Below, in pieces: positions 20,235 to 22,588 of a stretch of 52,839 nucleotides of DNA; within the stretch, counting starts at the first letter, position 1, and each line of letters begins with the position of its first letter. Origin of the DNA: Corallococcus terminator (GTDB taxonomy: Bacteria; Myxococcota; Myxococcia; Myxococcales; Myxococcaceae); assembly GCF_003611635.1 (NCBI RefSeq), contig NZ_RAVZ01000014.1, positions 1 to 52,839 of the forward strand, read 5' to 3'. The notes beneath the pieces were generated by a model. That model was not told the DNA's origin. It did not search any database and saw only the letters and a list, made by a program, of their open reading frames with translations. A program made the translations under genes and the position numbers.

Positions 20235-21377
20235 GTGAATCGACTCTATTGGAGCCTCCTCTTCCTGGCCGGCGCGACTTGTACGAGCCGTCAAGCGCGG
20301 CCCGACTCAACAGAAGATGTCCCTGTTCCATCAGCACAGGAACAGGCCCTCTTGATGCCAGAGGGATGTGAAGTGCTCGATCAGGGAACGTTTCCCCTGT
20401 TCATGCACAGAGGGACCCCCTTCACCGAAGTGGAAGTCAGTACGAACGGAGGCAAGGCCCGCACCTCCATGGTCGTGGATACGGGCTGGTCGGGCTGCAA
20501 CGCCCTGGATCCCTCGCTCGCCGAGGAGCTCGGGCTCAAGCAAGCGGACTCCGCACCGTGCTCGGGGGCTGGAGCGGGCACAGTGGTTGCTGGGTACCAA
20601 GGCGTGAGCTTTGGCCCCTGGCACGGCTGGGATGTCGTCCCCCATGACATGTCCGGGACAGAGGAGCTGCCCCGGCATCCGCGACAGCGCGGTGCCATCG
20701 CATCCGGGACCCTGGTCAACAACATGGCGGAGTTCGATCTGGGGCCAGACGGGAGCGCACCGGGGATGCTCCGCCTCTTCTATCGCGGCGACATCAACGT
20801 CTGCGCGGAGCCCAGAAGGCAGCTTGAGCAATGCCAGGCGCGCTGGGCTGGACTCTCGATGGAGGAAATCCCGCTGCGCTTCTACGGCTCCTGCATCACC
20901 GGGGAGTCACGGGGCGAGGACGTCAAGAACCGCTCGGTCATCCCGACCATCACGGCCGCGGTTTCAGGAGTCGAAGGATTGTTGCAACTCGATACGGGGA
21001 GGGACACGTCCAATGGCAGGGTCGACGTGTCGGTGAACGAGGCCTATGCCGAGAAGATTCGCGCCCGAATCCCCCTCAAGCAGAGAGGTCCGGAGACGGC
21101 GGCACATGGCAAACCCGGCTGCTTCGAATCCGCATGGGAGCCAGAGGATGCGTCAGAGCGTCTGGAGCTTCGAATGGGCAGCAAGGTCATCGCACTCGAG
21201 CAGCTCGTCGTTCGCAAGGGCACCTGCCAGACACCCTACGACGGGTCAGAGCCGGCGGGACTCATGGGGATGTCTGTCCTGGGACAAGCGCGTCGATTCG
21301 TACTCGACCCACATTCCAGAACATTGTTGATGCAGTGGAGGACGCCAGGACCGGAGCCGCTGACCACGCCCCCGTAG
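20235..21377 (+). CDS. Exported pepsin/retropepsin-like aspartic protease homologue
   Basis: A 380-residue protein starting at GTG 20235, six bases after the glycosyltransferase stop. The N-terminus has a hydrophobic signal (YWSLLFLAGATC) that could be a lipoprotein signal with Cys16, although the -1 Thr is atypical. Two aspartic-protease-like sites are visible: VVDTGWSGC with Asp82 and LQLDTGRDTSN with Asp253, one in each half, as in two-lobed pepsin-like proteins. The second lacks the usual small residue after Gly. Target unknown. Base usage is slightly lower in GC than the neighbours, which may reflect later acquisition. Confidence 0.65.
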   Translation: MNRLYWSLLFLAGATCTSRQARPDSTEDVPVPSAQEQALLMPEGCEVLDQGTFPLFMHRGTPFTEVEVSTNGGKARTSMVVDTGWSGCNALDPSLAEELGLKQADSAPCSGAGAGTVVAGYQGVSFGPWHGWDVVPHDMSGTEELPRHPRQRGAIASGTLVNNMAEFDLGPDGSAPGMLRLFYRGDINVCAEPRRQLEQCQARWAGLSMEEIPLRFYGSCITGESRGEDVKNRSVIPTITAAVSGVEGLLQLDTGRDTSNGRVDVSVNEAYAEKIRARIPLKQRGPETAAHGKPGCFESAWEPEDASERLELRMGSKVIALEQLVVRKGTCQTPYDGSEPAGLMGMSVLGQARRFVLDPHSRTLLMQWRTPGPEPLTTPP

Positions 21378-21462
21378 ACGAGCGAGAGGCTCGCACTTGA
21401 GGTGCCCTTCGAATGCCCCCTGGAGCACCTGAGCGGCAAGGTGTGGGGCTCGGCGGCGGCGG

Positions 21463-21491
21463 CTGACTTTCCCTGGATTTCTCTCTATCCT
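21463..21491 (+). promoter_or_regulatory. Candidate sigma-70-type promoter of the defensin-like gene
   Basis: CTGACT at 21463-21468 (4 of 6 to TTGACA) and TATCCT at 21486-21491 (4 of 6 to TATAAT) are separated by 17 bases. Transcription would begin near 21498, about 30 bases before the start codon. Between the preceding gene and this site lies an inverted repeat AGGTGC/GCACCT (21400-21430). The call rests on spacing and position only. Confidence 0.4.
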
Positions 21492-21529
21492 CGGTCGCTG
21501 TATCAAACCCCACCCCTCAAGAGGTTGAG

Positions 21530-21745
21530 ATGAACTCCTCCGTGAAGAAGGCTGGAAAGCTGCTGCTCGCAGTCGCCGTGGGCGCGGCCGTGTCGTTTGG
21601 CTCCACCGTGGCGGCCTACTCCCGCCCGTCGGAGCCGCTGTCCTTCTGCCAGGGCAGCCAGGGCGGCACCTGCGTCAATGACTGTATCGCCGACGGGTTC
21701 AACCTTGGCCGGTGCTCCGGCGACGTCTGCGTCTGCTTCTACTGA
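21530..21745 (+). CDS. Exported defensin-like (CS-alpha-beta) cysteine-rich peptide
   Basis: A 71-residue precursor with a clear signal peptide: Lys6, Lys7 and Lys10, a hydrophobic core to about residue 27, and likely cleavage after VAA near residue 29. The predicted mature peptide of about 42 residues has six cysteines at 40, 48, 52, 62, 67 and 69. Their spacing, C-x7-C-x3-C-x9-C-x4-C-x-C with Gly60-Arg-Cys62 as the GxC element, is the pattern of CS-alpha-beta defensins of invertebrates and fungi. Expected bridges are 40-62, 48-67 and 52-69. A related peptide, AdDLP, has been described from the myxobacterium Anaeromyxobacter. GAGG at 21521-21524 is the ribosome site. An antimicrobial or signalling role is inferred. 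Confidence 0.8.
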   Translation: MNSSVKKAGKLLLAVAVGAAVSFGSTVAAYSRPSEPLSFCQGSQGGTCVNDCIADGFNLGRCSGDVCVCFY

Positions 21746-21758
21746 GAACACCGCATCC

Positions 21759-21783
21759 ACGCCCCCGGAGAGCCCGAGGGCGT
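21759..21783. terminator. Hairpin terminator between convergent genes
   Basis: ACGCCC at 21759-21764 pairs with GGGCGT at 21778-21783, extended inward by CGG/CCG after one mismatch, leaving a 5-base loop. It sits 14 bases after the defensin-like gene and 19 bases beyond the stop of the convergent lipoprotein gene, so it could serve both strands. No T-run follows. Confidence 0.5.
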
Positions 21784-21802
21784 GCCACGGCCTACGTGCG
21801 CG

Positions 21803-22426
21803 TCACGGACAGAGCGTGCCTTCGCGGCGGCACACCCGGTCACCGCAGAAGCACGAGTAGCCCGTCGCACAGGGGCCACAGGGCGGGGGCGTATAGGCCT
21901 GTCCGACCACCGTCACGGTGTTGAGCAACGTGGCGTGCGCCGTCTCCGCGTAGAGCCGGAAGTCGTAGGAGCTGCCCACGTAGATCCAGGGCACGGACAC
22001 ACAGCCGCTCGGGCCACGGGACATGAGCGACTCGGGCTGGCCGTTCATGCTCACCCACACCTCGCCCGTGGTGGCGTTGGTGACGCTCCAGCAGACATTC
22101 GTCGTGCCGACCGTGGTGACGTTGGTGTTGATGCGCACGGTGGTGGGATTCGCGGTGACGGTCCCAGAGGGGATCGGCGCGCACGTGGACTCATTCCCCA
22201 GCCGGGGAAGACACGGGAACTCGACCGGGTTGCACCGGGTGGAACACGTCGAGGACACCCGGGTGTAGCCCGGGGGACACAGACCACAGACCACGATCGT
22301 CTGGGCCAGGGCGGCCTCTTCACTGGAGACCTGCACCGCGTCGTTGGAGGCCTCCGTGTCCTGGAAGTCCGGGCCGGCGCAGGCCACGGCGAATGCAGCG
22401 AGAATCAACGGCAGGATGCGCTTCAT
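21803..22426 (-). CDS. Cysteine-rich lipoprotein
   Basis: A 207-residue protein with a type-II signal: RILPLILAAFAVAC, lipid attachment at Cys16. ATG 22426 has the strong ribosome site AGGAGGGG. After a short acidic linker come cysteine clusters, CGLCPPGYTRVSSTCSTRC near residues 47-65 and CGPCATGYSCFCGDRVCRREG near the C-terminus. Between them is a beta-rich domain (VRINTNVTTVGTTNVCW..., WIYVGSSYDFRLYAE) resembling bacterial Ig-like folds. Function unknown. It faces the defensin-like gene across a shared terminator, which is noted but proves nothing about a link. Confidence 0.75.
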   Translation of the reverse strand: MKRILPLILAAFAVACAGPDFQDTEASNDAVQVSSEEAALAQTIVVCGLCPPGYTRVSSTCSTRCNPVEFPCLPRLGNESTCAPIPSGTVTANPTTVRINTNVTTVGTTNVCWSVTNATTGEVWVSMNGQPESLMSRGPSGCVSVPWIYVGSSYDFRLYAETAHATLLNTVTVVGQAYTPPPCGPCATGYSCFCGDRVCRREGTLCP

Positions 22427-22491
22427 GGGCAACCCCTCCTCGTATGGGTTTACGCGGAGCAGCGGATCATGAAGGCACCTGGAAACCCAAC

Positions 22492-22521
22492 GATTTACAC
22501 ACCCGGAGTGAAGTCCCGCAA
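22492..22521 (-). promoter_or_regulatory. Candidate promoter of the cysteine-rich lipoprotein gene
   Basis: On the minus strand TTGCGG (22516-22521) and TAAATC (22492-22497) are 18 bases apart, followed by about 65 bases to the start codon. The stretch is A/T-richer than its surroundings. Weak call from hexamer similarity. Confidence 0.3.
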
Positions 22522-22588
22522 AGGTGTCATGCTTCCGACGACCAGCTTGCGCGCGGAATGGACTCTTCCAATCCCAGCGCATCCCAGG

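What the first reader, a model, noticed from the sequence alone, without database searches (positions are those of the whole stretch)
21530..21745. Bacterial CS-alpha-beta defensin-like peptide
Six cysteines in C-x7-C-x3-C-x9-C-x4-C-x-C order with a Gly-x-Cys element, at the end of a signal-peptide precursor, match the animal/fungal defensin signature exactly. A defensin-like peptide (AdDLP) is known from the myxobacterium Anaeromyxobacter and was used to argue for a bacterial origin of defensins; a second bacterial example from another family would be valuable. The gene has a ribosome site, a plausible promoter and a terminator-like hairpin. Antimicrobial, signalling or predation roles are open.
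Basis: partly seen in the sequence, partly recalled or inferred. Interest (0 to 1): 0.9.

Follow-up and report, generated by a model that had tools for sequence, protein, structure and literature searches.

The report
Known-type myxobacterial defensin-like peptide
The window holds a real gene for a small secreted peptide with the six-cysteine defensin framework, but it belongs to a kind of myxobacterial defensin that is already in print, so it is a good new example rather than a new discovery.

Summary
ORF 21530-21745 (+) encodes a 71-aa precursor: leader, 10-residue tail, and a core C-x7-C-x3-C-x9-C-x4-C-x-C with G-x-C. It is not chance: the strict pattern occurs once in the window and in 0 of 120 simulated windows, and relatives keep it. 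P0001 found 34 places (E<1e-3) in 18 of 59 genomes, including 16 of 16 of its genus, which is Corallococcus by inference. 31 of the 34 keep the six-cysteine frame. Two predictions of moderate confidence give helix-plus-sheet topology, and the structural matches shown are, but for one, scorpion toxins, defensins or relatives of that fold. The defensin reading is right; the novelty claim is not. Cardoso et al. 2024 (PMC11561630) describe 74 bacterial cis-defensins in five classes, class I mostly from Corallococcus and class II including it, with an NMR structure of Myxococcus xanthusin-1. AdDLP has only four cysteines. The peptide best fits class II, though I could not compare it with the listed sequences. 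It is acidic, and xanthusin-1 was reported inactive against microbes, so function is open.

The parts
21463..21491 (+). promoter-like block CTGACT - 17 nt - TATCCT
   Evidence: position; not scored by the scan; both hexamers unchanged in C. praedator and in L054 of another genus; identity between window and C. praedator falls away upstream of about -75
21519..21524 (+). Shine-Dalgarno-like AAGAGG, 5 nt before the ATG
   Evidence: sequence; same in C. praedator
21530..21745 (+). precursor gene, 71 aa plus stop
   Evidence: 97% identical copy in G009
21530..21616 (+). signal peptide, residues 1-29 (KK, hydrophobic stretch, conserved SFxxT; cut inferred after Val-Ala-Ala)
   Evidence: alignment A1; cut site by inspection, no signal-peptide program was run
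21617..21742 (+). mature peptide, 42 residues: 10-residue tail, then the CS-alpha-beta core; net charge -2
21758..21784 (+). hairpin between convergent genes, no T run

Best explanation
It is a gene for a Sec-exported, three-disulfide CS-alpha-beta peptide (cis-defensin), one of two intact family members found in this genome, of the myxobacterial kind already described as bacterial defensin classes I and II. Shown here: the gene, the leader, the conserved six-cysteine framework, purifying selection in most of the compared pairs, and a predicted helix-plus-sheet topology. Inferred: the signal peptide is cut after residue 29, the disulfides 1-4, 2-5 and 3-6 form in the periplasm, and the folded peptide leaves the cell by a general route, since I recognised no dedicated transporter beside the gene. 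I think it most likely acts outside the producing cell as a small rigid binding scaffold in contacts with competing or prey microbes, by binding a specific envelope or protein target rather than by cationic membrane disruption. That last step is a guess at about 0.4, with no direct evidence; the stated confidence is for the identity of the peptide, not for this role.
For: Relatives: 34 places at E<1e-3 in 18 of 59 genomes, 16 of 16 of the genus; with profile A1, 41 of 145 genomes of the order at E<=0.01, some of them weak partial matches; with the core profile A6, 34 of 195 genomes of the phylum at E<=0.001, all 34 in one family. The six-cysteine frame is kept in 50 of 54 loci read (31 of 34, 19 of 20). 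The core profile reaches scorpion toxins at E 1.7e-7 and 3.7e-7, and plant, insect, fungal and actinobacterial defensins less strongly. Predicted H17-26, E30-34, E37-41 with seven sequences and E9-12, H19-26, E30-34, E37-41 from the sequence alone. Selection: dN/dS below 1 for the mature part in 16 of 19 hand-chosen pairs and for the leader in 18 of 19. Published kind: PMC11561630.
Against: Single-sequence profile matches are weak (best Pfam E 0.024, below its cut-off; best solved chain E 0.029). Models are of moderate confidence (mean pLDDT 68.6 and 72.6; pTM 0.42 and 0.45), Foldseek E is no better than 0.1 and 0.22, and VIA Z is at most 4.6. Two mature-part pairs have dN/dS above 2 (dS 0.04), one is undefined and one leader pair is 1.26. 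40 of 45 distinct precursors have a neutral or acidic mature part by a simple count, and xanthusin-1 was reported inactive, which speaks against a classical antimicrobial role.
Confidence: 0.93

Rival explanations
1. Classical antibacterial defensin: the peptide binds lipid II of competing Gram-positive bacteria, like actifensin and plectasin.
For: Same fold class. Actifensin, a bacterial CS-alpha-beta peptide, binds lipid II with nanomolar affinity (PMC12284004, passages). 12 of 25 family members match the NCBIfam actinodefensin model at E<=1, best 2.6e-5.
Against: Mature charge is -2, with only two basic residues in 42, while four of the nine plectasin residues linked to lipid II binding are Lys or His. 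P0001 itself is not listed for the actinodefensin model at E<=1. Xanthusin-1, the tested class II peptide, showed no antimicrobial activity (PMC11561630); PMC12284004 states the opposite of the same work.
Confidence: 0.25
2. A self-directed peptide: a signal, kin-recognition or developmental factor, or a structural part of the envelope or matrix, not aimed at other organisms.
For: A relative is present in 16 of 16 genomes of the genus. Conserved leader and diverse cores. No immunity partner recognised in a coarse comparison. Xanthusin-1 is expressed in all conditions tested, unaffected by a co-cultured competitor, and was inactive against microbes.
Against: No evidence of a receptor; subfamilies differ in copy number between species and some copies look decayed, unusual for an essential signal.
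Confidence: 0.3
3. A chance open reading frame or an unrelated Cys-rich peptide with coincidental spacing.
For: The window holds five matches to a looser six-cysteine pattern, so such spacing is not confined to this gene; but simulated windows average only 0.1-0.17 of those.
Against: Strict pattern once, 0 in 120 simulated windows; relatives with the same frame; fewer replacement than silent changes per site in most pairs.
Confidence: 0.02

Closest known systems
Bacterial cis-defensin class II (xanthusin-1, Myxococcus xanthus, PDB 7UNX), Cardoso et al. 2024, PMC11561630
   Same: Six cysteines, three-disulfide framework, GxC, signal peptide, N-terminal tail in the published range of about 8-13 residues (here 10, cut inferred), Cystobacterineae including Corallococcus
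   Different: First loop of seven residues, where 40 of the 45 distinct precursors read here have two to four.
Bacterial cis-defensin class I (corallosins), PMC11561630
   Same: Same framework and mostly the same genus (15 of 20 sequences from Corallococcus); the KCxN motif reported for four class I peptides occurs here in three relatives of the paralogue L031 (L007, L012, L035)
   Different: The window peptide has no KCxN and is acidic. Published class I has a tail of 1-4 residues; my inferred cut gives 10 here, but it gives 10-13 for all 38 precursors where the rule found a cut, L031's subfamily included, so tail length did not separate the classes in my hands
Actifensin / actinomycesin (PMC6989792, PMC8819291, passages)
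   Same: Bacterial CS-alpha-beta peptides; the solved chain 2ru0 (named as the actifensin/AMSIN structure) is matched weakly by the family profiles (E 0.037 and 0.036)
   Different: The actinobacterial peptides are reported as non-classically secreted, and those of Actinomyces as clustered between two ABC transporter genes; here a Sec-type leader and a gene without such neighbours recognised
AdDLP (Anaeromyxobacter), as described in PMC5116183
   Same: Myxobacterial, helix-stabilising cysteine motif
   Different: AdDLP has four cysteines and no GxC/CxG gamma-core; here six cysteines and GxC
Scorpion short K+ channel toxins (alpha-KTx)
   Same: Best-matched solved sequences for the family profiles (2rtz E 1.7e-7, 1q2k E 3.7e-7); 1q2k as aligned has the 4-3-9-4-1 spacing of the paralogue L031
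   Different: Bacterial, mostly acidic, no channel activity tested; common descent is not shown by this

Membership tests
CS-alpha-beta (cis-defensin) superfamily | Six cysteines with C-x3-C and C-x-C | tested here: met
   frame kept in 50 of 54 loci
CS-alpha-beta (cis-defensin) superfamily | Gly-x-Cys (gamma-core) | tested here: met
   Gly-Arg-Cys; this Gly is nearly invariant (at least 90%) in the 23 hand-picked cores
CS-alpha-beta (cis-defensin) superfamily | Helix packed on a two- or three-stranded sheet | tested here: met
   predicted only, moderate confidence; structural matches
CS-alpha-beta (cis-defensin) superfamily | Disulfides 1-4, 2-5, 3-6 | not testable with these tools
   no model coordinates among the files
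Bacterial cis-defensin class II (PMC11561630) | N-terminal tail of 9-13 residues before the first cysteine | tested here: inconclusive
   10 residues after the inferred cut, but the same rule gives 10-13 for all 38 precursors where it found a cut, so it does not discriminate
Bacterial cis-defensin class II (PMC11561630) | Clusters with the listed class II sequences | not testable with these tools
   the sequences are in a figure and supplementary tables, which were not open to me
Actinodefensin (NCBIfam NF038042) | Profile match | tested here: not met
   12 of 25 family members match at E<=1, but the model is not among the families listed for P0001
AdDLP-type four-cysteine peptide | Four cysteines only, no GxC/CxG gamma-core | tested here: not met
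   six cysteines and GxC; AdDLP as described
Antimicrobial defensin by function | Kills or inhibits microbes | not testable with these tools
   needs a bench assay

The most novel reading that the evidence does not exclude
A genus-wide, leader-conserved and core-variable multigene family of mostly acidic three-disulfide peptides, its genes scattered as solitary units, serves recognition between myxobacteria or of prey rather than killing; its cores, which among solved chains match scorpion potassium-channel toxins best, could be a remnant of the ancestral scaffold or of an ancient transfer.
Probability: 0.1. Interest if true: 0.6.

Novelty: new member of a known kind. Interest (0 to 1): 0.22.

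Why it matters
It adds that all 16 held genomes of this genus carry at least one relative, that one conserved leader carries several core subfamilies with different charge and loop length, and that the peptides are mostly acidic. These make functional tests by comparison of subfamilies practical; the real open question is what these peptides do.

Tried and rejected
Aspartic-protease neighbour (20235-21377, Asp_protease_2) as a maturation partner: rejected. No match at E<=1e-6 in the stretches held of 52 loci (53 entries, L054 entered twice, recounted), and in C. praedator the glycosyltransferase gene lies directly upstream of the peptide gene.

Conserved partner gene (transporter, protease, immunity): the shared ORF clusters that one search printed (the 40 largest) seemed to be shadow frames over the peptide gene or neighbourhoods of a subfamily; I recognised none across subfamilies. 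The scan was coarse (six-frame ORFs of 110 aa or more, no family annotation), so absence is not proved.

Genome-contig scan with P0001 alone found nothing. Pfam PF24552 over the genus gave matches in 14 of 16 genomes, none over its cut-off, and also rang in 7 of 14 control genomes, so it does not discriminate; three of its weak places away from the family, one of them in this genome, were read and are not six-cysteine peptides of this pattern. 7UNX was not among the 60 rows shown of 149 and of 87. A partial copy in G131 (L065) has no leader in frame and was not pursued. Alignment A3 misplaces the first cysteine; A5 was worse and not used, so a single-sequence model was made as a check.

Rows dropped before counts: one search leaves out six loci by hand (L006, L016, L036, L037, L046, L065) and three identical sequences of the 54, leaving 45; for seven of the 45 no cut site was found and the charge of the core alone was used. 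One search has 25 of the 34 loci: left out are L006, L036, L037, L045, L046, the identical L009 and L010, and the near-identical L032 and L033. The 23 cores were picked by hand and hold no decayed copy, so their invariance is partly by choice. The 19 pairs were chosen by hand among equal-length relatives. The structural tables show 50 of 129 and 50 of 99 Foldseek rows, and 50 entries each.

Full report
What is there. Bases 21530-21745 (+) encode a 71-residue precursor: a Lys-Lys pair, a hydrophobic stretch, Val-Ala-Ala, a 10-residue tail and a core C-x7-C-x3-C-x9-C-x4-C-x-C with Gly-Arg-Cys and an aromatic C terminus. A strict form of the pattern occurs once in the window and in none of 120 Markov-simulated windows.

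Relatives. A search of 59 related genomes with the precursor found 34 places at E<1e-3 in 18 genomes: 16 of 16 of the genus, plus G022 and G032. Of these 34 places, 31 keep the six-cysteine frame; L016 has lost the first cysteine, L036 and L037 look decayed, and among the 31 L046 lacks its own leader and L006 runs on past the core. Twenty further loci from the order-wide profile search were read; 19 keep the frame and L065 is partial. The leader is conserved while the core varies: within 25 precursors the invariant positions outside the leader are five cysteines and one glycine, and the first cysteine is nearly invariant. In 23 hand-picked cores all six cysteines are invariant and two glycines nearly so. 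In 19 hand-chosen equal-length pairs, dN/dS of the mature part is below 1 in 16, above 2 in two (dS 0.04) and undefined in one; for the leader it is below 1 in 18 and 1.26 in one. In this genome two places are strong, this one and G000:C321.

Which organism. A scan of named genomes with the paralogue subfamily returned five Corallococcus records and one Myxococcaceae MAG. By inference the window is from a Corallococcus species close to C. praedator, whose peptide is 97% identical.

Fold. With six relatives in the alignment the mature peptide is predicted as H17-26, E30-34, E37-41 (mean pLDDT 68.6); alone, as E9-12, H19-26, E30-34, E37-41 (72.6). The structural matches shown (50 rows in each) are scorpion toxins, insect, plant and fungal defensins, or peptides of that fold such as brazzein and a scorpion-toxin-based CD4 mimic, with one unrelated kinase at rank 48; that some of the less clearly titled rows have this fold is recalled. 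Scores are weak, as the chains are short (best E 0.1 and 0.22; best Z 4.6). By sequence the core profile reaches the scorpion toxins 2rtz (1.7e-7) and 1q2k (3.7e-7), and defensins with weaker E-values. Disulfide pairing could not be measured.

Gene setting. A promoter-like pair CTGACT-17-TATCCT lies 39-67 bases before the ATG; the scan does not score it, but its hexamers are unchanged in C. praedator and in L054 of another genus. Window and L054 match from 21459 to the end of the gene (80% over 284 columns) and not beyond, and none of the window's five tested neighbours matches in L054, so the gene behaves as a solitary unit. A hairpin without T run follows the stop codon and is conserved in C. 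praedator. The adjacent aspartic-protease gene has no match in the stretches held of 52 loci.

What it may do. The mature peptide has net charge -2; 40 of 45 distinct precursors are neutral or acidic by a simple count. [quoted passage not shown] A later paper says that it did have activity (PMC12284004, passages); I follow the primary report. A membrane-disrupting cationic action is therefore unlikely, and a specific-target role in microbial contacts is my best guess, at about 0.4.

Novelty. PMC11561630 reports 74 bacterial cis-defensins in five classes: class I with 15 of 20 sequences from Corallococcus, class II with 30 sequences from Cystobacterineae including Corallococcus and Myxococcus, and an NMR structure. 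PMC8819291 (passages) reports 48, and PMC6989792 (passages) cites a further 113. AdDLP has four cysteines (PMC5116183, passages). Searches for print on this family were. The window peptide fits class II by the length of its inferred tail, but that test does not discriminate here, and class membership stays open. It has a seven-residue first loop, which among the 45 distinct precursors only L001-L004 and L062 have. Whether its exact sequence is in the published tables could not be checked.

Noticed in passing
21459-21742, and L054 4736-5000: The upstream block, leader and core are about 80% identical at DNA level to a gene in another genus of the family, in an unrelated neighbourhood, with the match starting just before the promoter-like block; this may reflect transfer or transposition of a solitary unit.
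   Followed up: partly
20235-21377: A predicted aspartic protease (Asp_protease_2, E 2.9e-7; two D-T-G motifs by eye) sits between the glycosyltransferase and the peptide gene here but has no match in the C. praedator stretch, so it was gained here or lost there.
   Followed up: partly
21803-22582 (-): Convergent gene for a Cys-rich protein with a lipoprotein-like start, no Pfam match, partly conserved in C. praedator (80% over 92 residues).
   Followed up: no
L031 (G000:C321:37960-38157): The second intact family member in the same genome is basic (core +3) and has the 4-3-9-4-1 spacing of a scorpion short toxin; three of its near relatives carry the KCxN motif reported for class I.
   Followed up: partly
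L088 (G003:C200:11596-11688), L062, L063, L064: More distant six-cysteine relatives with different leaders, one (L088) with a longer third loop.
   Followed up: no
window, six frames: Five matches to a looser six-cysteine pattern against 0.1-0.17 expected; the other matches were not looked at.
   Followed up: no
PMC12284004 versus PMC11561630: The later paper says that xanthusin-1 was antimicrobial, while the primary paper says that it was not.
   Followed up: yes
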